A stretch of DNA of 52,875 nt from Centipeda periodontii DSM 2778 (lineage in GTDB: Bacteria; Bacillota; Negativicutes; Selenomonadales; Selenomonadaceae), in the NCBI RefSeq assembly GCF_000213975.1, contig NZ_GL892076.1:1713196-1766070 (forward strand), read 5' to 3'. Below, one piece after another: positions 12,157-51,914 of the stretch. Numbering within the stretch: position 1 is the first letter of the stretch; each line of letters starts with the position of its first letter. The notes under the pieces are model-generated. The model worked only from the letters and a program-made list of their open reading frames with translations. It did not search any database and had not been told where the DNA came from. The position numbers and the translations under genes are program-made.

Positions 12157-12181
12157 GTGCGCATTATCTGCTTTTCTCTAG

Positions 12182-12341
12182 GGAATCACTGATAAAATAG
12201 ACCCTCAGATTGGCGCAGATTTTTTCGTCCGATTGAGGCAGCAAACCGAACGCATAGCCAAAGCTATGTGGAGGATTTGCTAACGAAAAGCGGACAAAAA
12301 AGATGCGCTAAGATGGCGTGGCTGAATTTATCAGTGCTTCC
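12182..12341. mobile_element. MITE, 160 bp, copy 2, at the ecfA2 3' end
   Basis: Reverse-complement copy of the element at 4090-4251. Ends are GGAATCACTGATAAA at the left and TTTATCAGTGCTTCC at the right. The flanks are CTAG (12178-12181) and CTAA (12342-12345), which fit a YTAR-type IS5 target but are not an exact duplication. The last codons of ecfA2 (GKH and TGA) are formed by the element's terminal repeat. Confidence 0.85.
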
Positions 12342-26805: not shown

Positions 26806-27561
26806 TTACATAATAATCTCTGCCCCACCCTCGGGCAGACAGCTCTCAATATCGAGCACCATGCCGCGTGAGGCAAGGATATCCTGCACCGTTTCCCGCG
26901 CGAGCGATGGACGGTTATTTTCTTCCGAAAGATGTGCGAGATAGACCTTGCGCGGATGTTTTTTCATGCGCGTGAGTGCCCATGCCGCCTCCCCGTTGGC
27001 AAGATGTCCCCGATTGGATAGGATGCGTCGCTTGAGCGGCCACGGATAGCTTCCCTGACGCAGGAGGTCGGCATTGTGATTCGCTTCGAGGACAAGCACA
27101 TCTGCCCCCTCCATTGCCTCCTGCACCGTTTCGGTCACAACGCCAAGGTCGGTCGCAAGTGTGCAGCAATGCGAGCCCTCGATGCGAAAACCGCATGGTT
27201 CTGCCGCGTCATGCGAGATGGCAAACGGACGCACCGTCACTTCACCGATTTTGAAATCGTCCGCAATGCCCCGCATATCGTCCTCGAACGCCGCGCCGCC
27301 GTCAATCCCCGCAAGCGTTCCCCGCGTCGCAAGGATCGGCAGATGGTACTGCTTTGCCAGCGTCTTTAGTCCGCGCACATGGTCGATGTGCTCATGGGTG
27401 ATGAGCACGGCGTCCAGACTCTGCGGCTCGATGCCGCGCGCGCGCAGACTCTTCGTGATGCGCGCTGCACTGATGCCCGCATCGATCAAGAGTCGCGTGC
27501 CGTCCATCTCCACATAAACCGAATTTCCCTTGCTGCCGCTCGCCAATATGGATACCTGCAA
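26806..27561 (-). CDS. MBL-fold metallohydrolase, WalJ/YycJ type
   Basis: This protein of about 251 residues is a metallo-beta-lactamase-fold phosphodiesterase-like enzyme close to WalJ/YycJ, implicated in cell-wall and DNA-replication coordination in Firmicutes. Motifs: VSILASGSKGNSVYVE at the start, metal site LITHEHIDHVRGL (HxHxDH), ATDLGVVTETVQEAMEGADVLVLEANHN, and a late His in HLSEENN. I chose TTG 27561 because AGGGGG lies 7 nt before it and the mature start (LQVSILASGSKGNS) matches the family. The ATG frame from 27591 lacks a site. The htrA gene follows after 16 nt. Confidence 0.9.
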   Translation of the reverse strand: MQVSILASGSKGNSVYVEMDGTRLLIDAGISAARITKSLRARGIEPQSLDAVLITHEHIDHVRGLKTLAKQYHLPILATRGTLAGIDGGAAFEDDMRGIADDFKIGEVTVRPFAISHDAAEPCGFRIEGSHCCTLATDLGVVTETVQEAMEGADVLVLEANHNADLLRQGSYPWPLKRRILSNRGHLANGEAAWALTRMKKHPRKVYLAHLSEENNRPSLARETVQDILASRGMVLDIESCLPEGGAEIIM

Positions 27562-27636
27562 CGAACAGCCCCCTCTCTTCTCCCACATCATATTCTAGGT
27601 ATCTGTAAATTTCCTGCATAATTCTTATGGAGAACA

Positions 27637-28863
27637 TTATCTTGCCCAGAGCATGACTTCCTGCTCCACCCACTTCCCCTCATCCAACATAATGCGGATG
27701 AGTTCATGCCACGCCGAAAACTCCTCGCGTTCGAGAAGACTGCCAAGCCGTTTACGCTGCGTGGGTTTCAGTTCCTGCGCGTACGGCAAATAGGCACGAA
27801 AAGACTCTGTATCCATACGATACGGGGCGAGTTTTGGAAAGAAATGACTGCGCAGGTACTCAAAGATGCAAATTCCGCCATAGTCCAGATCCCCCCAGTG
27901 CTGCACGAGGACAGGCTGCATTGCGGCGATTTTTCGAAGGAATGCCTGTAGGGTACGATTCGGAAATCCCGCCGTATAGATCAGAAGACGATCCTCTCCG
28001 CCGTCCCGTGCAAGCAGCTCCGCATTCGTCAGATTCTCCACCGTCAGGACAGCGTGCGGCAATGTATCAATCAACATCTCTGTGATTGTTTCATACGTCA
28101 GCCCCATCCCACCGGAAAAATCAGCGAGTGAATATCTTCTGCCATGGAGTAAAAACGCCATGCTGCCCGCAATCCACACCTTGCCCTGATGCCCGGCAAT
28201 CCCAGACATATCGAGATACTCTGCGTCCGACTCACACGGTTCCTCTGTGAATCGCCGCAGAAGGACGAGCAATGGAGCCTCTACGAACTGCTCAAAATAC
28301 TTGCTGTTGCCAAAGATGCGCTGACTGAATACGCGTTTCGGTATGGAATTCTCTCCTGCATGTGGAAGTGCAAGAATCGCGCGGATCAGGTGGGCGCGAA
28401 GCACTTTCTCCTTGGGCAGATATGCGGGAATCTTCTTCTCTGAGAGCATTTCGCCCGTCTCACGGCAAAGACGCTGAATCCACAGTGTCTTTGCCTCCGA
28501 CAGTGCCGCGAGTTCGGCGCAATACTCCTCCACGCGTGCAAGCGGCAGCGTACGCCTCATGCGCGCATAAAGCTCTGCAACGTCCGCAGCGAGCAGAATA
28601 CGCTCCATATGTCCCGTGCCGTGACGCTCCCAGACAATTGAGATCATCCCTTGTCGCTCAAGTTCCTGCGCTGCTGCATGGAGCGCTTCGCGTTTATCGA
28701 CATCGAGTTCATCTGTATAGTCCGGGGCAAGGGAGGATTTCAACAGACGGAACTGTGGGCGACGCCCCTTCTCTCCGACGGCGGCTTTGCTGTTTTCATA
28801 TTTTTCCAACAGGATGGTCAGAATCTTCTCCTCATAACGCTTTTGCAGCCGTGTCCGATCCAT
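27637..28863 (-). CDS. jetD: Wadjet system nuclease subunit JetD
   Basis: This 408-residue JetD protein is the DNA-cutting subunit of Wadjet, which recognises and cleaves small circular DNA such as plasmids. JetD resembles the topoisomerase VI A subunit with a TOPRIM domain. Here the metal-binding residues are visible as Glu276 in TVENLTNAEL and the Asp pair in HWGDLDYGGICIF (Asp325, Asp327). The N-terminal 190 residues (winged-helix/arm region, KRYEEKILTILLEKYENS onward) and the middle GLTYETITEMLIDTLPHAVLTVEN fit the DUF2220 family. It overlaps the jetC 3' end by 32 nt, with an AAGGGA site upstream. Last gene of the Jet operon. Confidence 0.9.
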   Translation of the reverse strand: MDRTRLQKRYEEKILTILLEKYENSKAAVGEKGRRPQFRLLKSSLAPDYTDELDVDKREALHAAAQELERQGMISIVWERHGTGHMERILLAADVAELYARMRRTLPLARVEEYCAELAALSEAKTLWIQRLCRETGEMLSEKKIPAYLPKEKVLRAHLIRAILALPHAGENSIPKRVFSQRIFGNSKYFEQFVEAPLLVLLRRFTEEPCESDAEYLDMSGIAGHQGKVWIAGSMAFLLHGRRYSLADFSGGMGLTYETITEMLIDTLPHAVLTVENLTNAELLARDGGEDRLLIYTAGFPNRTLQAFLRKIAAMQPVLVQHWGDLDYGGICIFEYLRSHFFPKLAPYRMDTESFRAYLPYAQELKPTQRKRLGSLLEREEFSAWHELIRIMLDEGKWVEQEVMLWAR

Positions 28864-31800
28864 GCGTCATTCCCTTCTCCCATGTCGCCACGTCCCCCAG
28901 CTCATCGGTAAAGCAATGATTCCCGGCATTCGTTACAATGATCGACTGATCCATCAGAGGCGCAATTGCCGCCAGCTTCTCATCCGGAACGGCGACAATC
29001 AGCTGCATCTTCATGCGCTTGATGAGTTCGATGCAGGATTTGATGCGCTCCTCGTCCATCTTATTAAATGCCTCATCAAAGACCGTCAGGCGTATCGTCT
29101 TATCGCTATAGATCTGTTGAAATGCCGCGAGAATTGCAATGTAAAACGGCGTCTGCGTTTCTCCGCCCGAAGTCTGCCGGAGCACGCGCGAATACAGATA
29201 GGTCTGACCTGCCGTATCCGTGATGCGGATGTCGTAGTCCAGATAGCGGCGGTAGTCCGAAAACTCCTCCTGCTCCTCCGGTGTGCCTTTGACCAATTTG
29301 TCAAAGAGTTCCATTGCCTGCTCATTTGCGGCCGTGTCCGTCTCGGCAAAAAGTCCGCCCGCCATCTCCCAATCCGCCGTCATCACAGCATCGTAAAACG
29401 GTTTGTACTTCGCACTCGGCGTGATAATAAAACTGTACTTATCCTTGTGAAATTGAAATTGATCCAGAGAATAATTCAGCTCACGGAATTCATGACGTGC
29501 ACTTTCGATTGCCTCACGCATACTGAAAATGAAATGTGCCTTGAACTCCATCTCCGATTGTGCCAGAGCCTCCTTTGCCTTCTCCTCGAAGGAAGGAATG
29601 TCCGTCGCGGCAAGCCGATCAAGAATCTGTGCATAATAGCTGTGATCGGGATCGTAGACATGCCCCGTATCTCCATGCTCGAGCCCATAGCGCTCACGGG
29701 CAACAAGGAGCTGCTGCCACATATTGTCCCGCCGTGTTTCGTTCCCCCGCTTGCTGCTCTCATAGCTGTGCAGGCGCTCTTCCGTCGTACGCTCGTCACG
29801 CGTCTCCTGCACGAGGGAGGAGAAACGTGACTCGGCACTCGCACAGAGTCCCGGATAGGTCTCCCGCCACGCCCGAACCGCCGCTGCCGCCTCATCTGCA
29901 GCACGCGTGAGGAGGGGCAGCACACGCTCTGCCTGATCGAGTGCAGACTCGCTGCGTGCCAGCTCTCTCGTCGTTGCTGTGCAGGCACGTGCTGCCTCCT
30001 CAGCCTGCCGCCTGGATTCCTCATAGACAGATTTCAGACGCTCTGTCTCACTGAGATCCATCGCAGCCAGTTCACTCTCGATGCGCTTCCCCTCTGCCAG
30101 ACAAGTATCGAGCTCGGAGAGAACGGTCATCTTTTCAGCAAAGTTCACATATCTGTGCAGAGGCTCACGAAGAATAGGGGCAATCCGCTTCATACGCTCG
30201 GCTTCCTCGGCAAGTCCGGCAAGGCGCTGCTGCACCTCCATAAGTTCTCTCTGCCGAATCTCCAGCTGCCGCTCAATGGCACCTGCGCCGATGTATGGAA
30301 TCTCATAGAAACGGCGCGGAATCTGACGTGCGACCAAGCCCTTGTACGACATACAGGTTTTCGTCGCTGCACTCTGATACGCAAGCATCTCCTGCTCATC
30401 CTGCGCCTGCATGACCGTTCCAAGCAGATGGTCGATGCGCGCCTGTGCGAGCGGGTTCTTCGCCTGCAGGAGGTTTGCGAGCGATCCGTTTTCTCGGCGA
30501 TTCAGATACTTTTTCTCCGCCTCTGTATTGACGAGCCCAACGCCGTCAAAATGCCGTTCCTTCTTCTCCGTTTCGTAGATATGCAGCGCCTCACGAAACG
30601 TTTCCTGCTCTACGAGGAGATCAAAGCGCTGCGTGTTCAGATAGCCTTCGAGCGTATCGCGCCATGCCTCATCCAGAATCTCAAGCTCCTCACAGAGCAC
30701 ATAGACCTTGGATCGACCTGCAAGACGCTGCTCCAATAAAGCCTTGAGCCGCATCATCTCAGGACGGTATTTGCGCTGTCGTCGCTTCAGACCATCGATC
30801 TCCGCACGCAGTTCCTCCTGCCGCTGTGCGATCGCACTCTGCTCCTGTTCCAAAAGAAGACTGCTGCGCTGCCATGTCCCGGCGATCTCAGCGAGCATTG
30901 CGCCACCTGCACGCAGCTTTTCCTGTATCGGCTCGATCTCTGACGCCGCAATCGAATCCCCGCCCACATAGGCAAGTGTCGCCGCAAGTTCTGTGAGTGC
31001 CGCATCCATCCCATCGGGCAGGGCAAAGAAAGTCCCTGCCGGATAGGCAGAGAGAGCGCGCGCTCCTTCGGATTCACGCAAAAGCTCCTTTTGCATGCGC
31101 CGATGCGCATCTGTGAGCGCACGCCGTTTTTCTTCACATGCCGCTTGTTTTTCAAGCAGGGCATCGCGCCTGCGCTTTGTGTCATTTCCCTGCCATGCGG
31201 CATACGCCTCCTGCTGTTCCAGATTCCTGCGTTCGGACAGGTGCTCCTGTTCGCGCAGTTTCACCTGCAAAGCCTTCAATCGATCATGGCACATCTCTTT
31301 CTGTTGCCGCCCCGCCTCCAGCTTCTCCTCATCGTTCCTGTGACGGAAGGACAGCAGAACAAATTCCTGCTCGCACGCCGTATCCCGCCATTTGCAGTAG
31401 GAATCGTAGTTCTCCTGCAGCGATTCAAGTTGGCGCTTCTGCGCGCGCAGCCCCTGCAGGTCACGCTCGAACTTCTGATAGGAATAGAATACTTCTCGCA
31501 GAACGTCCAGTTTCAGATCGCGTGGGAGCAGGATGTATTCGTAGATAAAATCGCGCACTTGGTCGATGGGGCGAAAGGCAAGCGCCCGCGAGAACGCCGG
31601 CAGGAAACGTGCAGAGAGCTGCCCAAGACGGTTCATCAAGCGCCTTTGCCACTGCTTCTTCCCCGTCTCAAACACGCTGCTCCCGTGCGCATACCTTCGA
31701 TGAAATGCCTCCCGTGTGTACAATACGCCATCCGCATTACGGAATTCAACGTCTGAGAGTGTACGCTGATCGAGGAGAAAGAACTCCTCCTGCAAGCTGT

Positions 31801-32152
31801 CATCGCGAAAGACATCGACCACATAGCCGACAATAAAAGAATTTTTCTTGGCATCGTCATAGAATTCGAGAGCGATGTAAGAGGTAAACTCATCCGTGCG
31901 CAGATACTGCACGCCCTCTGCCTTGATCTTGCCGCGCAGATAGTGGATGAGCGTTCTCCGCGCCTCCTGTGTCGCGGCGGCGTTGAAGCGCGTCTGCGTT
32001 TGACTGCCAATGAAGAGATACTGCAGCGCGTCGAGCAGCGTGGACTTGCCCGCGCCGCTGTGTCCGGACAGCATCGTTGCGGAGCCAAAAGAAATCTCAT
32101 CTTCATCAAAATAATGCCAGTTAATTACCTTCATTTTCCGCAGTTTCTTCAT
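28832..32152 (-). CDS. jetC: Wadjet system SMC-like ATPase JetC
   Basis: This 1106-residue SMC/MukB-like motor of the Wadjet complex is thought to extrude DNA loops. Walker A GHSGAGKST is at residues 30-38, the ABC signature SGGE at about 995, and Walker B LTVFDEAFNKMD at about 1025. Between the ATPase halves lie long heptad-rich coiled coils (for example QKEMCHDRLKALQVKLREQEHLSERRN) and a globular hinge-like centre. I chose ATG 32152 because AAAGGAGG sits 6 nt before it. The longer frame to 32293 overlaps jetB deeply and lacks a site. It overlaps jetB by 32 nt and jetD by 32 nt, which points to tight stoichiometric control. Confidence 0.92.
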   Translation of the reverse strand: MKKLRKMKVINWHYFDEDEISFGSATMLSGHSGAGKSTLLDALQYLFIGSQTQTRFNAAATQEARRTLIHYLRGKIKAEGVQYLRTDEFTSYIALEFYDDAKKNSFIVGYVVDVFRDDSLQEEFFLLDQRTLSDVEFRNADGVLYTREAFHRRYAHGSSVFETGKKQWQRRLMNRLGQLSARFLPAFSRALAFRPIDQVRDFIYEYILLPRDLKLDVLREVFYSYQKFERDLQGLRAQKRQLESLQENYDSYCKWRDTACEQEFVLLSFRHRNDEEKLEAGRQQKEMCHDRLKALQVKLREQEHLSERRNLEQQEAYAAWQGNDTKRRRDALLEKQAACEEKRRALTDAHRRMQKELLRESEGARALSAYPAGTFFALPDGMDAALTELAATLAYVGGDSIAASEIEPIQEKLRAGGAMLAEIAGTWQRSSLLLEQEQSAIAQRQEELRAEIDGLKRRQRKYRPEMMRLKALLEQRLAGRSKVYVLCEELEILDEAWRDTLEGYLNTQRFDLLVEQETFREALHIYETEKKERHFDGVGLVNTEAEKKYLNRRENGSLANLLQAKNPLAQARIDHLLGTVMQAQDEQEMLAYQSAATKTCMSYKGLVARQIPRRFYEIPYIGAGAIERQLEIRQRELMEVQQRLAGLAEEAERMKRIAPILREPLHRYVNFAEKMTVLSELDTCLAEGKRIESELAAMDLSETERLKSVYEESRRQAEEAARACTATTRELARSESALDQAERVLPLLTRAADEAAAAVRAWRETYPGLCASAESRFSSLVQETRDERTTEERLHSYESSKRGNETRRDNMWQQLLVARERYGLEHGDTGHVYDPDHSYYAQILDRLAATDIPSFEEKAKEALAQSEMEFKAHFIFSMREAIESARHEFRELNYSLDQFQFHKDKYSFIITPSAKYKPFYDAVMTADWEMAGGLFAETDTAANEQAMELFDKLVKGTPEEQEEFSDYRRYLDYDIRITDTAGQTYLYSRVLRQTSGGETQTPFYIAILAAFQQIYSDKTIRLTVFDEAFNKMDEERIKSCIELIKRMKMQLIVAVPDEKLAAIAPLMDQSIIVTNAGNHCFTDELGDVATWEKGMTHGSDTAAKAL

Positions 32153-32720
32153 CGTCTTCCTCCTTTCTCTGTCGGTAAATCTCCAGTTTACGGTGCAGAT
32201 CCGAAAGTTCCTCTCCATCCACGGCAAGGGAGAGTGTATGGAAGAGGCGAATGCGCGCCTCTTCGGAGAGATCACGATCCAATACGTCAGCAAGACGGTA
32301 CTGTTTCGATAGCTGTGTCAGTCGCTGAATCGCGGTTTTCTTGAGATCGGGCAGATGCAGCGCCAGATACTTGGCACGGATCTCGGCAAGTGTCGTCATG
32401 GGAAACGCGCTCAGGTTGAGACCCGTGCGCTTTTCCTCATAGAGGAGGCGTAGCACAAGCAGCCAGATACTCTCCTCCAAGGTCAGCGCACGCCTGTGTG
32501 CCATCCCCGCACTGAGCAACCACACGATCTCATAGCGCTCATCCACGCGAAACTCCCAGCCGATCACCTGAAAGTACTCGGCAATTTCCTCCCGATATCG
32601 CCGTGCCGCAATGTAGAGTTCCGCATCGTGTTCACGCGTCAAAAAATTACACGCCAACAGGGACTGTATGACACTCCGAATCCGCTCACGCTCCTGCTCG
32701 TTTAACAGTTCCAGTTTCAT
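32121..32720 (-). CDS. jetB: Wadjet system subunit JetB (DUF4194)
   Basis: This 199-residue protein matches the MukE-like kite subunit JetB, which with JetA bridges the JetC heads. Recognisable are the N-terminal helix ERERIRSVIQSLLACNFLTREHD, the winged-helix-like ARRYREEIAEYFQVIGWEFRVDERYEIVWL, and LTLEESIWLLVLRLLYEEKR, typical of DUF4194. The tail is acidic (KEEDDEETAENEGN) and its DNA also encodes the start of jetC. The ATG overlaps the jetA stop by 4 nt. Confidence 0.88.
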   Translation of the reverse strand: MKLELLNEQERERIRSVIQSLLACNFLTREHDAELYIAARRYREEIAEYFQVIGWEFRVDERYEIVWLLSAGMAHRRALTLEESIWLLVLRLLYEEKRTGLNLSAFPMTTLAEIRAKYLALHLPDLKKTAIQRLTQLSKQYRLADVLDRDLSEEARIRLFHTLSLAVDGEELSDLHRKLEIYRQRKEEDDEETAENEGN

Positions 32721-34135
32721 TTTCTCTTCTCCCTGCGTCTGACCACGCGGTTGCTGTACCGGAGTGTATCCATCTCCTCGATGTCCTTGTCCTTGCCCAG
32801 CCGATACTTTGCCAAATCATCATGTCCGTAGAGATAGACATAGAGTAATTGCAAGAGGTCGGGATTCTCCTCCTCTCTGAGGCGAGACAACAGTTCACGA
32901 ATCTCCATCGAGCTGCGCTGCCCCAGCACGTCCAAAATCCATGCCTCTATCTTCTGCCGTGAGATGCCGCGTGCAACACGCTCCGCACTTTCACGCCGTA
33001 CGCGCTCTCGCATCATTTCGTCAACCTCACGCACAGGCGTGCCCGCGCTTGGCTCCAAAACGCGCTTTTTGCGCGGTACATAGCGCGATGACGGCAGAAG
33101 CATATTCATCGTCTGCAGATGAAAGAGACGCGGCAGTCCCTCTATTTCCTGCCCCTGCTCGCGCGCCTCGGAAATGGCGAGGAGCGTACCTGCGATCATG
33201 CTTTCCGTGCGCGCACTCCCCGCCTGCTGCAAATAGAGTGCGCGCTCATAGGAGGCTCTTACATACTGATTGTGACGGCGGTCAATCTGTGCGAACATAT
33301 CATCGAGCCCCCGATAGATCTCCTCGATGGCATGGAGCGATGCGTTCATGCGGTATTCCGCCGCCTCCATCGAGTCGGCAAGCTGACGGCGTACAGCGTC
33401 CTCGCAAAGTGCACGCAGGCGCTCTTTATTCTGCCGGATCTCCTGTACCTCCTGCAGGATGCGGATGCGATAGCGCGAGACATGATCCGATGTCTTGAGG
33501 CGATGGTAGCTGCGATCTACAATATCCGCCCGATATTCGACAAAATGGTGGGAGAGCACTTCCTGCAGGCTTGTCTGCGCGGACACCTGCTCCATCTTGT
33601 TCTTGATGTTGTTCAAGAGAATCCGCAGTTCCTCGACGAACTCTTCGGCGAGCCGCTCCGCCTCGAGCACCGCCATGCTCGGCTGCACCTTTGCTGCCTC
33701 CCCCGAGAGCACCTGATAGGTCGTAAAGGCAAAGCGCTGATACTCGACCGCCCGCCCCTCGCATAAATTTGCAAAAAGCCCCCACAAGCGGCTGCTGTAA
33801 TGTGGGAGCAAAATAAATATCTTGAAGTTCTCGCGCTGCTCATAGTCCAGCCAGCCGAATTCCTTCATGCGGCGAATCATATGATTTGCCTTGGCACGCG
33901 ACTCCTCCACGGCTGCATCCTGCCCCGAAAAGTCCTCGTCCTCATACGCAACGCCGGCATCTGCCCAGCTCTCGATGAGCTCCTGAAATTTATCGCGCAG
34001 AATCTCCTGCTCGATCCCAAATTGGGCAAGGCGATACTGCTCATAGAGACAAAGACCTGCCTCCGCATAGATCCGCCGACATTTCCCCGCCAGGAGCCCA
34101 AAGAAACGTTCCGGCAAAACATCAAACAGTTCCAT
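32717..34135 (-). CDS. jetA: Wadjet system subunit JetA (DUF5716-like)
   Basis: This 472-residue protein matches the JetA/MukF-like kleisin subunit in the form found with DUF5716-type Wadjet systems. It begins MELFDVLPERFFGLLAGKCRRIYAE, has a helical middle (RILLNNIKNKMEQVSAQTSLQEVLSHHFVEYRADIVDRSYHRLKTSDHVSRYRIRI interrupted by loops) and a basic C-terminal winged-helix-like region ending RRREKRK. First of jetABCD; 17 nt separate it from the plsC stop, with only a weak GGGA site, so it may rely on read-through and coupling from the plsC message. The exact Wadjet type (I, II or III) cannot be settled here. The JetA form suggests the DUF5716 type. Confidence 0.87.
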   Translation of the reverse strand: MELFDVLPERFFGLLAGKCRRIYAEAGLCLYEQYRLAQFGIEQEILRDKFQELIESWADAGVAYEDEDFSGQDAAVEESRAKANHMIRRMKEFGWLDYEQRENFKIFILLPHYSSRLWGLFANLCEGRAVEYQRFAFTTYQVLSGEAAKVQPSMAVLEAERLAEEFVEELRILLNNIKNKMEQVSAQTSLQEVLSHHFVEYRADIVDRSYHRLKTSDHVSRYRIRILQEVQEIRQNKERLRALCEDAVRRQLADSMEAAEYRMNASLHAIEEIYRGLDDMFAQIDRRHNQYVRASYERALYLQQAGSARTESMIAGTLLAISEAREQGQEIEGLPRLFHLQTMNMLLPSSRYVPRKKRVLEPSAGTPVREVDEMMRERVRRESAERVARGISRQKIEAWILDVLGQRSSMEIRELLSRLREEENPDLLQLLYVYLYGHDDLAKYRLGKDKDIEEMDTLRYSNRVVRRREKRK

Positions 34136-34152
34136 GATCCCGTCTCACTCTC

Positions 34153-34755
34153 TTATTTTTGCGCAAGTTCTTCCTTCATCCGCGCAATATGTCCCATGAT
34201 CTCCTCGGAGAACGCATCGAGCGACTCCTTGCTCTTACGATCGCCGTGAAATGTGATCGGCTCGCCGTACATGATGCGCAGCTGCGGGATGAGTCCGCCG
34301 TTCGCAAAGATGCGGTGCGTGTTCAGGATGGCGACGGGCACGATCGGCGCCCCCGTCATGGCGGCAATGAGAGCGACGCCCGCCTCCGCCTTTTGGAGCT
34401 CGCCCGTCTTGCTGCGTGTCCCCTCGGGGAAGAGTCCCAAGATACGCCCCTCTTTGAGTACCGCGACCGCCGCCTTGATGGCACCGCGGTCGGACGCGCC
34501 GCGCTTCACGGGAAAGGCATGACAGCGGCGAATCGCCGCGCCGAAGATCGAATTCTCGAACAGCTCGATCTTCGCCATATAGCTGACGGGGCGCTCGATG
34601 AGACTCGCCATCAGCGGCGGATCGATATTGCTCGCATGGTTCGCCGCAAGGATCACCGCGCCCTCTGCGGGGATGTTCTCACGTCCGTAGACGCGCGTGC
34701 GAAATACCGTATAGAAAAATAGCCGAAATACAATCTGTAAAAATCCGTACAGCAT
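34153..34755 (-). CDS. plsC: 1-acyl-sn-glycerol-3-phosphate acyltransferase
   Basis: PlsC acylates lysophosphatidic acid to phosphatidic acid at the inner membrane. The 200-residue protein has a hydrophobic N-terminus (LYGFLQIVFRLFFYTVF), the catalytic HX4D motif NHASNID (His40, Asp45), PVKRGASDRGAIKAA and substrate motif LFPEGTRS. GGGGAC lies ahead of ATG. It follows cmk by 12 nt, a pairing seen in many Firmicutes, and here leads straight into the Wadjet genes. Confidence 0.95.
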   Translation of the reverse strand: MLYGFLQIVFRLFFYTVFRTRVYGRENIPAEGAVILAANHASNIDPPLMASLIERPVSYMAKIELFENSIFGAAIRRCHAFPVKRGASDRGAIKAAVAVLKEGRILGLFPEGTRSKTGELQKAEAGVALIAAMTGAPIVPVAILNTHRIFANGGLIPQLRIMYGEPITFHGDRKSKESLDAFSEEIMGHIARMKEELAQK

Positions 34756-34767
34756 GACCGTCCCCGC

Positions 34768-35421
34768 CTATTCCGAAAGTTCCATAATGCGGGCAACAAC
34801 CGCGTCGATGGAGAGCGCGGTCGAGTCGAGCAGAATGGCATCCTCTGCCTGACGCAGCGGTGAGATCGCACGCTCACTGTCCTGCTTGTCGCGCGATGCA
34901 ATCTCCTTTTTCAGGTCATCGAAGTCCACCGCATAGCCCTTTTCCTTCATCTCATCATAGCGACGCCGCGCACGTTCCTCGACGGAGGCCGTAAGAAAGA
35001 TCTTTACATCGGCGTTCGGCAGCACATTCGTCCCAATATCACGCCCATCCATCACGACTGCACCATCCGCCGCCATTGCGCGCTGCAGCTCCACCATCTT
35101 CTCACGCACAGGACCAAGTGCAGCGACACGAGAGACGATGTGTGTGACCTCAGGCGTGCGGATCTCTCCCGTCACATCCGTGCCGTCGACCGTGACGCGT
35201 GTGCCGCTGTCCGTGCAGGCAAGGCGCACGTCAATGCCCTCGACAGCGCGCAGGATCGCCTCATCCGTCGCCTCCGACGACTGCTGCAGCGTCTTCCACG
35301 CGACAGCGCGGTACATTGCACCCGTGTCGATGTATGTATAGCCCAACTTCTCTGCAACGATCTTTGCAACGGTACTCTTGCCCGCACCCGCAGGGCCATC
35401 AATCGCTATCACACGCTTCAT
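34768..35421 (-). CDS. cmk: Cytidylate kinase
   Basis: Cmk phosphorylates CMP and dCMP. The 217 residues carry the P-loop IDGPAGAGKSTVAK, TYIDTGAMYRAVAW, a central VVMDGRDIGTNVLPNADVKIFLTAS and KEIASRDKQDSERAISPLRQAEDAI with the lid arginines. GGAGG lies 8 nt before ATG, and the aroA stop is just upstream. Housekeeping member of the aroA - cmk - plsC operon. Confidence 0.97.
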   Translation of the reverse strand: MKRVIAIDGPAGAGKSTVAKIVAEKLGYTYIDTGAMYRAVAWKTLQQSSEATDEAILRAVEGIDVRLACTDSGTRVTVDGTDVTGEIRTPEVTHIVSRVAALGPVREKMVELQRAMAADGAVVMDGRDIGTNVLPNADVKIFLTASVEERARRRYDEMKEKGYAVDFDDLKKEIASRDKQDSERAISPLRQAEDAILLDSTALSIDAVVARIMELSE

Positions 35422-35433
35422 ATCACAATCCTC

Positions 35434-36741
35434 CTAGCTCATCCGTTCCATCTCGGAAAAAAATGTCGGGTAGGAAATATTCACACTGTCCGGGTCTTCA
35501 ATTAAGACGCCCTCTGCCGCTGCACCGAGTACGGCAAGCGACATCGCCATGCGATGATCGCCGTAACTTTTGACCTGCGCCCTTTGCGGCTTCGCTTTCC
35601 CGTGGATCAGGAGACCGTCCTCCCGCTCCTCGATGCTGCCGGGCGCAAGTTTTTGGAACTCCGTTGCAACGGCGTGGAGTCGGTCGGTCTCCTTGACGCG
35701 AAGCTCGCCCGCACCCGTGATGACCGTATCTCCCTCGGCAAAGAGTGCGGCGACGGCGAGAATCGGAATCTCGTCGATAAGGCGCGGCATAATCTCCGCA
35801 CCGAAGGAAGTGCCGCGCAGCTCTGCTGCCTCGACCGCGAGGTCGGCAACGCGTTCACCGCCGCTCGTTCGCTCATTCTGCACCGAGATATGCGCGCCCA
35901 TCTCCGTGAGCACATCCAGAATCCCCGTGCGCGTCGGATTGATGCCGACATTCTTGAGCAGCAAACGGCTGCCCGCGATGATACTGCCCGCAACGAGGAA
36001 GTACGCCGCCGAGCTGATGTCACCGGGTACGGTAATCTCCTCCGGCGCACGATAGCCGCCGTCCTCCACAGGAAAAACAGTGACACTCGTCCCGCTGCGC
36101 TCGAGGCGAACGCCGAAGCCCGCAAGCATCTGCTCCGTGTGGTCGCGTGAAACGTACGGCTCCGTGACGGTCGTCGGTCCATCTCCATAGAGTCCTGCGA
36201 GCAGGATCGCAGATTTGACCTGTGCGCTCGCAACGGGGCTCTCGTAATGAATGCCGTGCAGCTTTTCCCCCGTTGGTACGATGGTGAGCGGGAGGTTATT
36301 GTTTCCGCTGCGCCCGTAAATCCGCGCGCCCATCTGCGAGAGCGGCAGGAGCACGCGCCCCATCGGGCGGCGCGTCAGCGAAGCGTCACCGCTGAACACG
36401 GAGAGAAACGGCTGCGGCGCAAGGAGCCCCATCATGAGGCGCAGTGTCGTCCCCGAGTTTCCCGCATCGAGTACGGTCATCGGCTCGGACAGCCCGTGCA
36501 GACCTTTTCCCGTAACAATCAGTTCGTTCTCATTCAAAAATTCGATTGCTGTGCCAAGCGCACGCATCACGCCAACGGTTGACAGGCAGTCCTCTGCATG
36601 GAGAAAGTTTTTGATATGCACGGGTGTATCGCCAAGCCCCGCAAACATAACGCTGCGATGTGAGATGGATTTGTCCCCCGGAATCGTCAGTTCGCCCTGC
36701 CATCCGGACTGTGCCGCCTCTACGATTCTCAGCTCCGCCAT
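35434..36741 (-). CDS. aroA: 3-phosphoshikimate 1-carboxyvinyltransferase (EPSP synthase)
   Basis: AroA joins shikimate-3-phosphate and phosphoenolpyruvate, the sixth step of the shikimate pathway. The 435 or so residues show the substrate Lys in TIPGDKSISHRSVMFAGLG, LDAGNSGTTLRLMMGLLA, LTRRPMGRVLLPLSQMGARI and GDHRMAMSLAVLG. GDKSISHR and LDAGNSGTTLR are the two family signatures. The PEP-binding loop reads GNSGTTLR, where glyphosate-tolerant class II enzymes usually have Ala instead of the second Gly, so sensitivity cannot be called here. ATG 36741 lies 6 nt downstream of the preceding stop region, with AAGGGG upstream. The longer frame to 36768 overlaps that gene. Confidence 0.96.
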   Translation of the reverse strand: MAELRIVEAAQSGWQGELTIPGDKSISHRSVMFAGLGDTPVHIKNFLHAEDCLSTVGVMRALGTAIEFLNENELIVTGKGLHGLSEPMTVLDAGNSGTTLRLMMGLLAPQPFLSVFSGDASLTRRPMGRVLLPLSQMGARIYGRSGNNNLPLTIVPTGEKLHGIHYESPVASAQVKSAILLAGLYGDGPTTVTEPYVSRDHTEQMLAGFGVRLERSGTSVTVFPVEDGGYRAPEEITVPGDISSAAYFLVAGSIIAGSRLLLKNVGINPTRTGILDVLTEMGAHISVQNERTSGGERVADLAVEAAELRGTSFGAEIMPRLIDEIPILAVAALFAEGDTVITGAGELRVKETDRLHAVATEFQKLAPGSIEEREDGLLIHGKAKPQRAQVKSYGDHRMAMSLAVLGAAAEGVLIEDPDSVNISYPTFFSEMERMS

Positions 36742-36746
36742 TCTGT

Positions 36747-38000
36747 TCAAGCCCCTTCCAAGTTCCATACACTGTGGACACCTGCGGCATGCCCCATCGA
36801 AAACGCCGCCTGCAAGTTATAGCCGCCTGTGTACGCGTCGACATCGACCAACTCTCCGGCAAAGTATAGATTGCGCACAATCTTCGATTCCATCGTGCGC
36901 GGGTTGATCTCACGCGTTGCGACCCCTCCCGCCGTCACAATTGCCTCGGCGATGGGACGCGTCCCCACGATCGTCAGCGGGAGCGCCTGCAAGATATGCA
37001 CAAGGCGTTCACGTTCCTTTGATGAAATCTGTCCGACGATGCGCTCGGGTGCAAGCCCCGCCGCATTCAGCACAATGTCGATCAAACGCTTTGGCAGGAG
37101 ATCGACCATGCCGTTGTGGAGCTGTTTCTGCTCGTATGCTGCAAAATCCCGCTCCACACGCTCCCGCAATTTTTCATGCGTCAACGCCGGTTTGAGGTTC
37201 AGCCGCAGTTCGATGTCCTTTTGCCCATCCGTTAGAAGTTCCGATGCGCGGCGGCTCAGCTGGAGGATGATCGGACCCGTCACCCCGAAATGCGTAAAGA
37301 GCATTTCTCCGAAAAAGTCCTGTTCTTTTTTTCCCGCATGATACAGTGTCGCGCGCACGTTCCGCAGCGACAGCCCCTGCACATCCCTGACCCACGTTTC
37401 CTGCGTCACAAGGGGAACAAGCGCAGGAAAGATCGGTGTGACCGTGTGTCCTGCCGCGCGTGCAAGCGCATAGCCGTCCCCCGTGGATCCCGTCGCAGGA
37501 TAGGAGGCGCCGCCCGTTGCAAGAATTACGGCTGCCGCCTCGATGCACGTTCCGTCCGCAAGACGGACGCCACGCACGGTATTGGCGTCGAAGATAAGTT
37601 CACACACGGTCGCATTCGTACGAATCTCCACGTTGTGATCATGCAGATATTTCAGCATCGCGTCCACCACATCGAGGGCACGGTCACTCTGCGGAAAGAC
37701 GCGGTTTCCACGCTCCGTCTTAAGCGGAACGCACAGCCCCTCAAAGAATGCGATTACATCGGCATTGTCAAAGGCACGGAGACTGCTGTTGAGAAATCTG
37801 CCGTTTCCCACGACATTTTTGATGATATCAGGAATCTCGTCGGCGCTTGTAACGTTGCAGCGCCCCTTTCCCGTGATCATCATCTTGCGCCCGACGCGCG
37901 GCATTTTCTCAAGGAGCAGAACGTTTCCCCCGTTTTCTGCCGCTGCTGCCGCCGCCATCATGCCTGCCGGTCCCGCGCCCGCCACGATGATCCGCTTCAC
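36747..38000 (-). CDS. FAD-dependent oxidoreductase, HI0933/BaiN-like
   Basis: This protein of about 417 residues belongs to the HI0933/YhiN/BaiN flavoprotein family. FAD-binding Rossmann motif IIVAGAGPAGMMAAAAAAENGGNVLLLEKMPRVGRKMMITGKGRCNVTSADE appears in pieces at the N-terminus (GAGPAGMMAA; EKMPRVGRKMMITGKGRCN). Later come LATGGASYPATGSTGDGYALARAAGH and the C-terminal FAGELVDVDAYTGGYNLQAAFSMGHAAG. The cellular role is unclear in most bacteria; BaiN acts on bile acids in gut clostridia, which need not hold here. The start is taken as GTG 38000 (VKRIIVAGAG) with GGGGG about 9 nt upstream. The gene overlaps the rluB 3' end by 92 nt. Confidence 0.9.
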   Translation of the reverse strand: MKRIIVAGAGPAGMMAAAAAAENGGNVLLLEKMPRVGRKMMITGKGRCNVTSADEIPDIIKNVVGNGRFLNSSLRAFDNADVIAFFEGLCVPLKTERGNRVFPQSDRALDVVDAMLKYLHDHNVEIRTNATVCELIFDANTVRGVRLADGTCIEAAAVILATGGASYPATGSTGDGYALARAAGHTVTPIFPALVPLVTQETWVRDVQGLSLRNVRATLYHAGKKEQDFFGEMLFTHFGVTGPIILQLSRRASELLTDGQKDIELRLNLKPALTHEKLRERVERDFAAYEQKQLHNGMVDLLPKRLIDIVLNAAGLAPERIVGQISSKERERLVHILQALPLTIVGTRPIAEAIVTAGGVATREINPRTMESKIVRNLYFAGELVDVDAYTGGYNLQAAFSMGHAAGVHSVWNLEGA

Positions 38001-38727
38001 TCTCCCGCACCCCCGCAACCACACGTAGTTTCTGAATCTCCTCTGCCGTCAGATGCCGATAGGCACCGCAGGAAAGCCCGCGTAAGGTCAGCTGCGCAAA
38101 TCGGACGCGCCGGAGCGTCATAACGCGACAGCCGATCGCGGCGAACATACGGCGCACCTGTCGGTTGCGCCCCTCATGGATGATTGTCTCGACCACGGTA
38201 CGCCCATCCTCTGCGCGCAATACGCGCAGACGTGCGGGGGCGGTTCTGCCGTCTTCGAGCAGGATTCCACGACGCAGCTGTTCCAGCCCCTCTGCCGTAA
38301 CCTCTCCCATTACCTCTGCATGGTAGACCTTGTCGATCTCATAGCGCGGATGCAGCAGTCCCTGTGTCAATGCGCCGTCATTGGTGATGAGGAGCAGGCC
38401 CTCCGTATCGGCATCGAGCCGTCCCACGGGATAAAGCCGCACGGGAAAATCGGGCAGGAGATCGAGCACCGTTTTGCGCCCACGATCATCCCGCACGGTC
38501 GAGAGATAGCCGCGAGGCTTATTGAGGAGAATATAATATCGCTTTTCATGTCCCTGAATGCGTTTGCCGTCAACGGTAATGACATGCCGCATCGCCTCAT
38601 ACTTCGAGCCGAGTTCTGTCACCACAACACCATCTACCGCAACACGTCCCGCACGGATCATCTCCTCCGCCGCACGGCGCGACGCGACGCCCGCACTGCT
38701 GAGGATTTTCTGCAATCGTTCTTCCAT
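37909..38727 (-). CDS. rluB: RluB/RsuA-family pseudouridine synthase
   Basis: This 272-residue enzyme modifies uridine in 23S rRNA (RluB type), though RsuA- or RluF-like specificity cannot be excluded. The N-terminal S4 RNA-binding domain (ERLQKILSSAGVASRRAAEEMIRAGRVAVDG) is followed by the catalytic domain with LLNKPRGYLSTVRDDRGRKTVLDLL and the Asp in PVGRLDADTEGLLLITNDG, then EGRNRQVRRMFAAIGCRVMTLRRVRF. The fold normally ends near AEEIQKLR. The extra 37 residues (rich in Gly, Arg, Ser) come from DNA that also encodes the flavin-binding start of the next gene. AGGAAA lies 7 nt before ATG. Confidence 0.93.
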   Translation of the reverse strand: MEERLQKILSSAGVASRRAAEEMIRAGRVAVDGVVVTELGSKYEAMRHVITVDGKRIQGHEKRYYILLNKPRGYLSTVRDDRGRKTVLDLLPDFPVRLYPVGRLDADTEGLLLITNDGALTQGLLHPRYEIDKVYHAEVMGEVTAEGLEQLRRGILLEDGRTAPARLRVLRAEDGRTVVETIIHEGRNRQVRRMFAAIGCRVMTLRRVRFAQLTLRGLSCGAYRHLTAEEIQKLRVVAGVRESEADHRGGRGTGRHDGGGSSGRKRGKRSAP

Positions 38728-38735
38728 TTCGTTTC

Positions 38736-41700
38736 CTACCGCATCTTGACAGAGCCTTCACCCATAAGCTGCGTAAGTTCCTGCCGCACCTCCGGTGAGC
38801 CGTCAATCCAATAGGACTCATCCAGCCGCCGCCATCGCCCGTCACTGCGAACGTAGACGGGATGCTCCCCCGCATGAGCGGCGAAGAGTTCCTGCATCCC
38901 GCTCCACAGCGTACGACGGTCAACATCGGTCGGCGGCATCAGGTAGAAGGAAGCACGATACTCATTCATCCGCCAGATCTCATCGGCGAGCAGCTTCGGT
39001 TCCTCGCCGGTTGTATCGACACGCCCCTCCATAACGATGACCGCATCCGACTCCAAATCGGAAACATGTGCGTAGAATACGCGCGGGAACACGGTGACCT
39101 CGATCTTGCCGCTGAAATCCTCAAGCTCGGCAAAGAGCATCGTGTCGCCCTTCTTCGTCGTAAAGCGCTTCGTGTTCGTAAGGATCCCGCCGATGCGTAC
39201 GAGCTGCCGATCCTTATGTACGGTATGCGGAATCTCACCGATGGACAGCAACGCAGAGAGTGTATCGCGGTAATCATCGAGTGGATGCCCCGTAATGTAG
39301 AAGCCCGTCGCCTCCTTTTCCCACATCAGACGCTCGCGCGCCGTACTTGGTGGAACATCCGCCGCGCCCCGGATCTGCTGAGCCTCCTCCATCGTTTCCT
39401 CGGCAAAGAGCCCCCCCTGTCCACTCATGAGGTCACGTTGGCGCCGTGCCGCGTCCTGCATTGCGGCATCAAGGGAGGCAAGCAGCTGATTGCGCTCCAC
39501 TCCGATGCTGTCGAATGCTCCGCATTTGATGAGGCTCTCAATCGCGCGCTTGTTGACCGCGCGCATATCGACGCGCGCGCAGAAATCCACGAGCGAACGG
39601 AACTTCCCACCCTCCGCACGAACGCGCTCCATGCTCACAATCGCATTCTCACCGACGTTGCGTACCGCAGCGAGCCCGAAGCGGATCGCACCGCCTTCGA
39701 TTCCAAAGCTCGCTGCACTCGAATTTATATCGGGCGGCAGGATTCTGATCCCCATACGGCGGCAAAGCTGGATGTAGACGGGAATCTTCTCCGTCTTGTC
39801 CATAATGCTCGTCAGTACACCCGCCATAAACTCCACGGGGTAATGCGCCTTGAGGTATGCCGTCTGCCATGCGAGGAGTCCATAGGCGGCACTGTGGGAC
39901 TTGTTGAAGCCATAGTCTGCGAAATGCGTCAGCAGATCGAAGATATGATTGGCAAGTGATGCCTCAAGCCCATTCTTCTCACAGCCCTGCAGAAAAATTT
40001 CCTTCTGTGCCATCAGCAGGTCATGCTTCTTCTTCCCCATTGCACGGCGCAGAAGGTCCGCCTGCCCGAGACTGAACCCCGCGAGTACCTGCACAATCTG
40101 CATGACTTGCTCCTGATAGAGTACGACGCCGAATGTTTCCTTCAAAATCGGCTCGAGCATCGGATGCATATAGACGACCTCTTTTTTTCCGTGCAGACCG
40201 TCGATGAAGTCGGTCACCATACCGCTCCCAAGAGGACCCGGACGATAGAGTGCTACCGTCGGAATCAGATCGACAAAGCCCTTCGGCTGGAGATCTTTGA
40301 CGAGATTCGTCATGCCTGTAGACTCCATCTGAAACACAGCGCCTGTATCGCCATCGCACAGCATTTGTGATGTTTTCTCGTCCACCAGCGGAATTGCATC
40401 GACATCCACGTCAATCCCACACGTTGCATGTACGTGCTGCACCGTATCCGCGATGATCGTCAGTGTACGCAGTCCCAGAAAGTCCATCTTGAGGAGTCCC
40501 AATGCCTCCACATCGTCCTTGTCGAACTCCGTAACGAGTGTCCCCTCGGAGACCCAGACCGGTACCTGACTTGCGAGCGGATTCTTTGCGATCACAACAC
40601 CGGCCGCATGGATGGATGTATTGCGCGGCAACCCTTCGATTTTGCGCGCGAGATCGATGACCCTGCGGACATTCTCATCTGCATCGTAGATATTCCTAAA
40701 GTCGGACGATTCCTTAAGCGCGCGATCCAATGTGATGTTGAGTTCCGCAGGAACGAGCTTTGTGATGCTCGAAACCTCACCGAACGACATCTCGAGCACA
40801 CGTCCGACATCGCGAATCGCGCCCTTTGCCCCCATCGTACCAAACGTGGCGATCTGCGCGACATGATCCTCGCCGTAGCGCTCCTTGACATACGAAATCA
40901 CCCGTCCGCGATTGATATCGTCAAAGTCAATATCAATATCCGGCATGGACACGCGTTCGGGATTGAGGAATCGTTCAAAGAGGAGTGCGTATTGAAGGGG
41001 ATCAATATTCGTAATCCCCAGCAGATAGGCAACGATGCTGCCCGCTGCAGAACCGCGCCCGGGTCCGACGGCAACGCCGTGCTCGCGCGCATAGACAATA
41101 AAGTCCCACACGATGAGAAAGTAGCTGGCATACCCCATGCCATGAATGACGCCGAGCTCATAGTCCAGACGCGCGTGAATCTCATCCGTCACATCCGGAT
41201 AGCGTGCGGGAATACGCTCTTCACAGAGAGCGCGCAGATAGGCGTCGTCGCTCTCATAATTCTCAGGGATCGGATAAAACGGAAGCTGCAGTTCGCCGAA
41301 GGTGAAATCCACCTGACAGCGCGCGGCAATTTTGGCGGTATTCTCAAGCGCACCCGGATAGTCTGCAAAGAGCGCCGCCATCTCCTCTTCCGATTTCAGA
41401 TAGTAATCGGGACCGGAGAAGCGCATGCGGTCGGGATCGTTGATCGTCCGCCCCGTCTGCACGCAGAGCAGGATGTCATGAAACTCACTGTCATTTGCAT
41501 GGACATAGTGCACATCATTCGTTGCAACCAGACCAATATCATAACGTTCCGCCATCTCACGGAGCGTACGGTTGACCGTCTTTTCCTCGGGGAGCCCGTG
41601 ATCCTGTATCTCGAGGAAGAAGTTCTCCTGACCAAAAATCTCGACATACTCACGAAGCAAAGTCTCTGCCTGCTCGTTATTCCCGCGCAGGATCGCCTGC

Positions 41701-43956: not shown

Positions 43957-44643
43957 TCAGACCTCGGGATGGAGCTCCGCACCGTATTCATGCAGGAAAA
44001 TCTTCTGATATCGTTTGTATTCCGGCGCAAGCGGCTTCTCACGCGGGCAGTGGATGCACCAAAAATCCTCTTCCTGATTTGGAACCACAACGCGAAAATC
44101 ATGCCGCCGCATCTCCATACACATCGACGTGTCATAGAGATGCCAGCCTGTAAAGAGATCCTCGCGCCACCGAATGCCGTACTGTGTCGCAAGAAAAAGC
44201 CCATCCACAGCCTCGACATCAATGTAGTCATCATCCGGCTCCATACAGTGCGAGTCCACCACGCTCTCCGGCTCACAATGATGAAGGACACGCCCGTAAG
44301 TACGCAGACCATCCCACCAGACTCCCGAACGCGGCAGACTGCGGCAGCCGATCACACCGACAAGCCCAACGGTCGGATCCGCAAAGATGGAAAGCAGATC
44401 GGCAATGATATTTTTGTTGACGACAAGCACATCCTGATGCAGATAGACATTGTATTTTGCATTGGACGCACGCGCACCCTCATTATATCCCGCACACATG
44501 GAAACGGCATTACGTACAGGTATATATTCTACTGACATCCCATGCGGGATGTGTAGTGATTTTAGATACAGCAGACATTCACTATACATATCCTCGTCAT
44601 TGACACAGGAAATAAACGCAATTTTATTTCGGTTCAGATCCAT
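43957..44643 (-). CDS. Family 2-like glycosyltransferase (StrF-like)
   Basis: This protein of about 228 residues has the compact GT-A-like fold of the Glyco_tranf_2_5/StrF group: KIAFISCVNDEDMYSECLLYLKSL, an NAVSMCAGYNEGARASNAKYNVYLHQDVLV segment with a likely metal/nucleotide-sugar acidic pair (HQD), VGLVGVIGCRSLPRSGVWWDG, DDDYIDVEAVDGLFLATQYG and WHLYDTSMCMEMRRHDFRVVVP. It probably adds sugars to protein or a glycan started elsewhere. ATG 44643 follows the upstream stop by 7 nt and GAGGG lies just before it. The ATG at 44664 is an alternative overlapping the upstream gene by 14 nt. Part of a three-gene glycosylation set with the genes on both sides. Confidence 0.82.
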   Translation of the reverse strand: MDLNRNKIAFISCVNDEDMYSECLLYLKSLHIPHGMSVEYIPVRNAVSMCAGYNEGARASNAKYNVYLHQDVLVVNKNIIADLLSIFADPTVGLVGVIGCRSLPRSGVWWDGLRTYGRVLHHCEPESVVDSHCMEPDDDYIDVEAVDGLFLATQYGIRWREDLFTGWHLYDTSMCMEMRRHDFRVVVPNQEEDFWCIHCPREKPLAPEYKRYQKIFLHEYGAELHPEV

Positions 44644-44650
44644 GATCCCT

Positions 44651-50625: not shown

Positions 50626-50640
50626 AATGAATACCTCCAT

Positions 50641-50835
50641 TTATTTTTCGCTTTCAAAGCGTTTTTTCAAAACCTCATAATGATTTCGATTGCTTTTATC
50701 CCCGCCATTATCCGGGAACAAGCAATAAGGCAAACTATCCGTTGTACGGTGCTTTATGACGCAAGCACAACACCTCCCATGATTTTGGCACGATATTTTA
50801 GGACAAATACATTCTTTTACATTTTCGCAGTGTAT
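50641..50835 (-). CDS. Cys-rich small protein without a standard start codon
   Basis: An open frame of 64 codons encodes a Cys-rich protein (CENVKECICPKISCQNHGRC, CACVIKHRTTDSLPYCLFPD, ending LKKRFESEK) with eight Cys in the first 40 residues, resembling small cytosolic zinc- or metal-binding proteins found beside such permeases. The frame has no ATG, GTG or TTG. The best initiation point is ATA at 50833-50835, with GAGGT 6 nt upstream, exactly where an ATG would be expected. It is therefore either a start-codon mutant or an unusual ATA start. It lies between the permease stop and the thioredoxin start. Confidence 0.55.
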   Translation of the reverse strand: MHCENVKECICPKISCQNHGRCCACVIKHRTTDSLPYCLFPDNGGDKSNRNHYEVLKKRFESEK

Positions 50836-50849
50836 TTTTCTACCTCATT

Positions 50850-51863: not shown

Positions 51864-51914
51864 ATCCTAACCTCTCTTTCTTAATAAATCAAGAATTTTC
51901 GATTTGATATTCCT

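What the first reader, a model, noticed from the sequence alone, without database searches (positions are those of the whole stretch)
27637..34135. Complete Wadjet (JetABCD) system embedded in a housekeeping operon
Four genes match JetA (MukF-like), JetB (MukE-like), JetC (SMC ATPase, Walker A at residues 30-38, SGGE, FDEAF) and JetD (TOPRIM Glu276, Asp325, Asp327). They lie between plsC and walJ in the same direction with no visible promoter of their own; jetA starts 17 nt after plsC. Wadjet limits plasmid and other circular DNA uptake. Hard-wiring it to aroA-cmk-plsC transcription suggests constitutive rather than induced defence. It also means that plasmids would be hard to keep in this strain.
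Basis: partly seen in the sequence, partly recalled or inferred. Interest (0 to 1): 0.75.

Follow-up and report, generated by a model that had tools for sequence, protein, structure and literature searches.

The report
Plasmid-cutting operon behind a housekeeping operon
A Selenomonas-type bacterium carries a complete set of known plasmid-destroying (Wadjet) genes attached to the end of a housekeeping operon; the system itself is of a known kind, but related species have broken or lost it at the same spot several times, which gives a natural experiment on what such a defence costs.

Summary
They follow aroA-cmk-plsC with a 17-nt gap, with no promoter- or terminator-like site found there. Of 14 genomes of the genus, 6 carry jet at this junction, 6 have an empty plsC-walJ junction, one keeps a jetA::jetD scar, and one has plsC and walJ unlinked and no jet. 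Only 3 of 6 carriers are intact; the others have different lesions, against 0 of 67 comparisons of neighbouring genes. Jet synonymous divergence is mostly like that of its flanks, so jet seems an old resident that is repeatedly lost. JetD changes 2.3-5.5 times faster than JetA. A 2025 paper names a Selenomonas as one of two small-plasmid exceptions to Wadjet-plasmid exclusion; a dead jet could explain it, but that strain's jet was not seen. A known system in an informative setting.

The parts
32717..34135 (-). jetA, kleisin/MukF-like subunit, 472 aa
   Evidence: PADLOC JetA1 E 2.8e-219; Pfam JetA 305 bits
32121..32720 (-). jetB, KITE/MukE-like subunit, 199 aa; overlaps jetA by 4 nt
   Evidence: PADLOC JetB1 E 2.7e-87; Pfam DUF4194
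28832..32152 (-). jetC, SMC/MukB-like ATPase, 1106 aa; overlaps jetB by 32 nt
   Evidence: PADLOC JetC1 E 0; P-loop 30, SGGE 995, FDEAF 1025
27637..28863 (-). jetD, nuclease subunit with TOPRIM acids E276, D325, D327; overlaps jetC by 32 nt
   Evidence: PADLOC JetD1 E 1.3e-136; Pfam JetD_C 76.5 bits; acids invariant in 19 of 19 JetD aligned
34136..34152 (-). 17-nt plsC-jetA gap, no promoter- or terminator-like site found
34153..34755 (-). plsC, upstream neighbour, presumed same operon
   Evidence: Pfam Acyltransferase; TIGR00530
34768..35421 (-). cmk
   Evidence: TIGR00017
35434..36768 (-). aroA
   Evidence: TIGR01356
27587..27620 (-). conserved element upstream of walJ (TGCAG-N3-ATTTACAG, then a variable AT-rich end such as GGAATATnAT), promoter- or regulator-like
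   Evidence: position; a strict pattern matched 10 of 14 genomes; in the other four (G003, G005, G007, G010) it is seen by eye with small changes or, in G007, ahead of an inserted repeat
26806..27591 (-). walJ-like MBL-fold protein; a TTG at 27561, 7 nt after GAGAGGGGG, is the likelier start
   Evidence: Pfam Lactamase_B_2; TTG at that place in 13 of 14 genomes

Best explanation
This is a complete type I Wadjet plasmid-restriction system with open frames. It was acquired at the plsC-walJ junction in an ancestor of part of this Selenomonas-type genus. It is transcribed by read-through as the 3' end of the aroA-cmk-plsC unit, translated as an overlapping jetABCD block, and ends just before walJ's own promoter. 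By analogy with studied Wadjets, JetABC extrudes small circular DNA and JetD, a TOPRIM nuclease, cuts it. Across the genus the system has mostly been inherited vertically but repeatedly inactivated or deleted. Shown here: gene content, motifs, positions, shared junctions, lesions, scar and divergence. Inferred: read-through transcription, activity, the single gain and the cause of the losses.
For: Family models and motifs; catalytic acids invariant in 19 of 19 JetD aligned. Genus survey: jetA in 6 of 14 genomes, all at the same junction. Empty junctions of 65-292 nt, counted from the last plsC codon to the start of the walJ match, in 6 of 14. G002 keeps a scar that reads from jetA residue 107 into the end of jetD. 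jetA 9-20 nt past the plsC stop without a terminator found in 6 of 6 carriers, against hairpins after plsC in 4 of 6 empty junctions (G004 and G008; G005 z -9.2 and G012 z -5.5). walJ element in 14 of 14. Mean dS of the jet genes is at or above that of the five flanking genes in 6 of 8 pairs, and dN/dS of jetA-C is 0.04-0.13, like the housekeeping genes (means are my arithmetic). Broken: 4 of 12 jet comparisons against 0 of 67 other gene comparisons in G001, G006 and G009.
Against: No expression or activity data. The AlphaFold model of JetD is poor (mean pLDDT 51.7, four sequences), so the CAP/TOPRIM fold was not shown by structure. No solved chain matches JetD by phmmer at E up to 1, and the profile search gave only two weak chains, E 0.007 and 0.95, not named as nucleases. 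The genus tree is weak: 4 of 11 inner branches are well supported, so the order of gain and losses is not fixed. In the two pairs of G006 with G001 and G009, jet dS is lower than that of the flanks (means about 0.26 against 0.35, and 0.22 against 0.37), which could mean exchange of jet among those three. No hairpin was found by the criteria in 4 of 6 empty junctions (G003, G005, G012, G013) nor behind plsC in G010, and the G005 and G012 hairpins have U-poor tails. The walJ element has no clean sigma-70 spacing.
Confidence: 0.8

Rival explanations
1. Jet is an accessory module moved between species by recombination through the plsC and walJ flanks, so empty and filled junctions are exchanged alleles, not one gain followed by losses.
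For: Patchy presence; the shortest reconstruction needs 4 changes on the tree; six empty sites show no jet remnant by tblastn. In the two pairs of G006 with G001 and G009, jet dS is below that of the flanks.
Against: In the other 6 of 8 pairs mean jet dS is at or above that of the flanks, so no recent transfer between those species is seen. The G002 scar shows at least one true deletion.
Confidence: 0.25
2. The broken jet alleles in G001, G006 and G009 are sequencing errors and the system is intact across carriers.
For: Single stop codons in G001 and G009 could be base-call errors; assembly quality is unknown, and the named FOBRC6 contig is the same assembly as G009, so it is no independent check.
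Against: 0 of 67 other gene comparisons in the same stretches are broken by the rule. G006 has several lesions in jetA and jetC. The genomes were picked because they looked broken, so the contrast speaks against general error or decay but is not an unbiased test.
Confidence: 0.12
3. Jet has a private promoter inside the 3' part of plsC and is regulated apart from the operon.
For: Consensus scans miss other promoter types; the walJ element shows that unusual promoters may exist here.
Against: No minus-strand promoter-like site in 34100-38800; jetA 9-20 nt past the plsC stop in 6 of 6 carriers.
Confidence: 0.18
4. It serves chromosome organisation (MukBEF/MksBEF-like) rather than plasmid restriction.
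For: JetC shares head-domain similarity with MukB (3euj, E 1.3e-4).
Against: jetD is linked with complete acids; jet is absent or reduced to a scar in 8 of 14 genomes; PADLOC type I.
Confidence: 0.05

Closest known systems
Wadjet (JetABCD), type I by PADLOC; studied examples include E. coli GF4-3 (type I, PMC10586767, passages) and those of B. cereus Q1 and Clostridium cellulovorans (PMC12287153, abstract, passages and sections 15 and 17; their type was not checked)
   Same: Four genes in the order ABCD; family models, SMC motifs and JetD acids
   Different: Attached to aroA-cmk-plsC, with 4-32 nt overlaps between jet genes. The nearest JetB found outside the genus is about 51% identical. In 13 other loci read, no plsC or cmk match lay in the stretch fetched. 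The N-terminal IFDR motif reported for a studied JetB (PMC10586767, passage) is absent from the window JetB; relatives were not checked for it.
MksBEFG / EptABCD, names used for the same kind of complex in corynebacteria and mycobacteria (PMC10586767, passages)
   Same: SMC, kleisin and KITE plus TOPRIM nuclease; a null mutation is reported there for a laboratory M. smegmatis strain
   Different: Not compared directly here
MukBEF
   Same: Head-domain similarity of JetC to MukB
   Different: No nuclease subunit in MukBEF (recalled)

Membership tests
Wadjet type I | Four genes jetA-jetB-jetC-jetD in order on one strand | tested here: met
   coordinates; identities
Wadjet type I | Each protein matches a type I model best | tested here: met
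   JetA1, JetB1, JetC1, JetD1 top hits; JetB2 21.8, JetC2 43, JetD2 32.9 and JetD3 21.2 bits at best among those shown
Wadjet type I | JetC ATPase motifs (Walker A, signature, Walker B) | tested here: met
   GHSGAGKS 30, SGGE 995, FDEAF 1025
Wadjet type I | JetD TOPRIM acidic residues | tested here: met
   E276, D325, D327 identical in 19 of 19 JetD aligned
Wadjet type I | JetD CAP + TOPRIM fold | tested here: inconclusive
   AlphaFold mean pLDDT 51.7; Pfam JetD_C matches residues 266-404
Wadjet type I | ATP-dependent restriction of small circular plasmids | not testable with these tools
   needs a transformation or conjugation assay
MukBEF/MksBEF chromosome condensin | No linked nuclease gene (recalled) | tested here: not met
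   jetD is linked and overlaps jetC

The most novel reading that the evidence does not exclude
A once-fixed Wadjet that expression coupling cannot switch off is being killed over and over in this genus because the only escape from constant plasmid exclusion is mutation. Plasmid carriage (for example the 15.6-kb erm(B) plasmid of Selenomonas sp. oral taxon 136 F0591, if that strain belongs here) would then mark strains with a dead jet. JetD, the fastest-changing subunit, would be the face in conflict with plasmid-borne counter-defence.
Probability: 0.25. Interest if true: 0.65.

Novelty: new member of a known kind. Interest (0 to 1): 0.42.

Why it matters
Wadjet is known, but little is known of its natural life cycle. 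Here one shared junction shows intact, nonsense, frame-changed, scarred and empty states among species of one genus, so the cost of a plasmid-excluding system can be studied by comparison. It also bears on PMC12287153 (section 17 read). Of about 1,442 jetD-bearing Bacillota strains, that paper found plasmids in 32; [quoted passage not shown] oral taxon 136 F0591. The authors doubt that those two sequences came from clonal isolates. The plasmid record seen here says 'pure culture', and 3 of 6 jet carriers in the genus surveyed are broken, so a dead jet is a simple, checkable explanation. Whether F0591 belongs to this genus, and whether its jet frames are open, was not seen.

Tried and rejected
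JetD structure: AlphaFold with four sequences gave pLDDT 51.7; no fold search was run on it because matches would be meaningless. Sequence searches of solved structures gave no JetD.

Plasmid content of the genus as a test of exclusion: Rep_3 in 0 of 14 (2 of 14 control genomes rang) and Rep_1 in 0 of 14 (no control rang). Relaxase PF03432 in 2 of 14, G002 and G009, both with dead jet. That is weak: 6/91 by chance (my arithmetic); G009's sits on an 8.4-kb contig beside what look by eye like integrase and nagBA genes, and G002's is on the chromosome contig. F0591's plasmid Rep matched 0 of 14 (no control). Its MobF matched, in 14 of 14, a 726-745 aa frame over query residues about 512-905 only, taken as a chromosomal helicase (recalled). 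Withheld contigs read N, so absence means little here.

Amber recoding as a reason for three TAG codons in jet genes: rejected, because TAG also ends jetD in the same three genomes and no other gene compared there has an internal stop by the rule.

Counting rules behind 0 of 67: gene-genome comparisons, 26 in G001, 26 in G006 and 15 in G009. Stops within the first 20 residues were ignored, with a looser rule, the ORF 43957-44715 showed a stop at residue 14 in G006 and at 12-13 in G007, taken as lying upstream of the true start. G007 jetC is listed as broken only because that query carried a 47-residue upstream extension; with the true start it has none.

The tblastn match of jetA 107-190 to G002 (33% identity) is only partly jetA: about its first 20 residues are jetA and the rest runs into the jetD remnant and beyond.

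Mobile carriage: viral contigs, no relative, with two narrow peptide patterns; phages, one 30.5% match to 61% of jetA in a 4.5-kb record; plasmids, JetD homologues in 9 records, all of 174 kb or more.

Literature, listings only unless said: Wadjet+Selenomonas, 1 paper; Wadjet+operon+housekeeping, 9, none of which seemed from title and abstract start to treat a Wadjet joined to a housekeeping operon; Wadjet/JetD/pseudogene/inactivation, 15, none described there as natural jet decay in a genus. One search was too broad to tell (26,620 papers, 12 listed), and one search listed 12 of 42 with none that seemed to treat the rate of JetD change. Only open-licence papers are held.

Full report
What is there. 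Four minus-strand genes at 34135-27637 are jetA, jetB, jetC and jetD with open frames. Best PADLOC models are all type I and Pfam agrees; NCBIfam has no match for JetA, JetB or JetD. The JetD acids and the following GG are identical in 19 of 19 JetD proteins aligned, 6 from the genus and 13 from other genera.

Operon setting. An HI0933-like gene, aroA, cmk, plsC and jetABCD follow one another with gaps of 12-17 nt or overlaps. A consensus scan shows no minus-strand promoter-like site from 34100 to 38800 and no minus-strand terminator between plsC and jetA. The comparison between species is stronger than the scan. In 6 of 6 carriers jetA starts 9-20 nt past the plsC stop codon (one search prints 12-23, which includes the stop) with no terminator found. 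Of the 6 empty junctions, G004 and G008 have a hairpin with a T-rich tail by the criteria. G005 and G012 do not meet them but fold into long hairpins in stretches that I picked by eye (z -9.2 and -5.5), with tails poor in U. G003 and G013 have none. The G002 junction has a terminator-like hairpin at the end of its repeat element. So carriers appear to lack a stop that most non-carriers keep.

Where the unit ends. In 14 of 14 genomes walJ is preceded by an element of the form TGCAG-N3-ATTTACAG with a variable AT-rich end, often GGAATATnAT (window 27587-27620). A strict pattern matched 10 of 14. G003, G005 and G010 differ by a base or in the flank, and in G007 the element lies ahead of an inserted repeat. 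It is present in G010, where walJ lies about 124 kb from plsC, so it belongs to walJ. Its other strand resembles the paired TGT half-sites bound by WalR in other Firmicutes; that consensus is recalled and was not tested. In S. aureus walJ is transcribed on its own (PMC4801191, abstract start in the listing). Jet is thus most likely the last block of the aroA-cmk-plsC unit, not an insert inside a longer operon.

Distribution. That the group is oral is recalled. JetA is found in 6 of 14 by protein search, with a short remnant in G002. JetD_C is found in the same 6 of 14, one place each. plsC and walJ are neighbours, or flank jet or its scar, in 13 of 14. One genome of each of 13 other genera of the family was searched; 11 had both hits and 0 of 11 showed them adjacent, ten having them on different contigs and one 1.1 Mb apart. 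In the class, 9 of 380 genomes pass the JetA cut-off: 6 in this genus and 3 in three other families; five more have weak matches below it. This points to a horizontal gain. JetB matches 50 of 398 phylum genomes, the window's own included, and the best outside the genus are about 51% identical. In 13 such loci read, no plsC or cmk match lay in the stretch fetched, 10-19 kb long; in one (G103) the contig ends close to jetA, and a weak walJ-like match (26%) lies about 1.3 kb past jetD.

Decay. Of the 6 carriers, G000 (the window), G007 and G011 are intact. G009 has a stop at jetA codon 43 and G001 a stop at jetC codon 169. G006 has frame changes in jetA and jetC and a stop at jetC codon 475. G002 retains only a scar that reads from jetA residue 107 straight into about the last 27 residues of jetD, with a stop inside, next to a short repeat element. 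In G001, G006 and G009, 4 of 12 jet gene comparisons are broken against 0 of 67 other gene comparisons (Fisher 3.3e-4). Those genomes were chosen after seeing the lesions, jet genes are long, and the count rests on rules told under Tried and rejected, so the figure speaks against general error or decay rather than giving a rate. Within the trio dN/dS of jetA-C is 0.04-0.10, which suggests that the deaths are recent.

Age. In 6 of 8 pairs the mean synonymous divergence of the four jet genes is at or above that of aroA, cmk, plsC, walJ and htrA (means are my arithmetic, values above about 1 are near saturation, and for G006 only the longest piece of jetA and jetC was used). In the two pairs of G006 with G001 and G009 it is lower, about 0.26 against 0.35 and 0.22 against 0.37. 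The first fits long vertical residence; the second leaves room for exchange of jet among those three close species. A tree of five neighbour proteins (14 rows, 1200 columns) needs 4 changes when G002 is scored as a former carrier. Only 4 of 11 inner branches are well supported, and the clade holding all carriers has 83/81 support. Within that clade of 11, 3 species are intact, 3 broken, 1 a scar and 4 without trace (G005, G008, G010, G012). On checking this paragraph against I lowered the main confidence from 0.82 to 0.80 and raised the exchange rival from 0.20 to 0.25.

A fast nuclease. JetD dN is 2.3-5.5 times that of JetA in the 8 pairs and its dN/dS is 0.12-0.21. Another genus of the phylum shows the same order: among G392, G475, G509 and G586, JetA is 95-97%, JetB 95-99%, JetC 91-94% and JetD 71-91% identical. 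Catalytic acids stay fixed. Relaxed constraint and conflict with plasmid factors both fit; they were not separated.

Mechanism. From established work (PMC10586767, passages), JetABC is thought to sense smaller circular DNA by loop extrusion and JetD cuts it; plasmids under about 50-100 kb are affected. Deletion of a native Wadjet in C. [quoted passage not shown] The window system has every part needed; activity is inferred. Constitutive supply by read-through is inferred from anatomy.

A published exception. PMC12287153 section 17 reports that of about 1,442 jetD-bearing Bacillota strains 32 have plasmids. It names Selenomonas sp. oral taxon 136 F0591, with a 15.6-kb plasmid, as one of two with a small plasmid and jetABCD, and doubts that the sequence came from a clonal isolate. 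The plasmid record, NZ_CP014240.1, is 15,626 bp, circular, MOBF, carries erm(B) and states 'pure culture'. The chromosome was not held, and its Rep matched 0 of 14 genomes, without a control. Whether its jet is dead is therefore a prediction, not a result.

Verdict. The repeated loss at one junction and the fast JetD are the parts worth following.

Noticed in passing
window 452-3662 (-): Three PD-(D/E)XK nuclease-family transposase (PF12784) genes in tandem with long direct repeats between them.
   Followed up: partly
window about 12179-12344: A roughly 160-bp element with inverted ends (GGGAATCACTGATAAA ... TTTATCAGTGCTTCCC) and TA at each edge. One end sequence was found in 15 of 113 loci held, from several genomes of the genus; copies lie next to the G002 jet scar and between the walJ element and walJ in G007.
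   Followed up: partly
window 50254-52262 (-): ArsR-type regulator, ArsP-like permease and a thioredoxin-domain gene in the stretch of lowest GC in the window, 38-43%; possibly acquired.
   Followed up: no
window 27559-27591: walJ probably starts at the TTG at 27561, 7 nt after GAGAGGGGG, not at the ATG at 27591.
   Followed up: partly
L058-L063 (G678, G633, G475, G509, G392, G586): In another genus of the phylum jet lies downstream of a shared large (1296-1405 aa) helicase-like ORF, named by eye, in 4 of 6 species read (G392, G475, G509, G586); JetD diverges fastest there too.
   Followed up: partly
plasmid collection hits H21-H29: JetD homologues occur in 9 plasmid records, all of 174 kb or more, as expected if Wadjet spares only large plasmids; only 3 of the 9 cover 80% or more of JetD.
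   Followed up: no
L086 (G009 contig 81): Relaxase with what look by eye like integrase and small DNA-binding genes, beside nagBA-like genes: an apparently integrated mobilisable element in the jetA-broken strain.
   Followed up: partly
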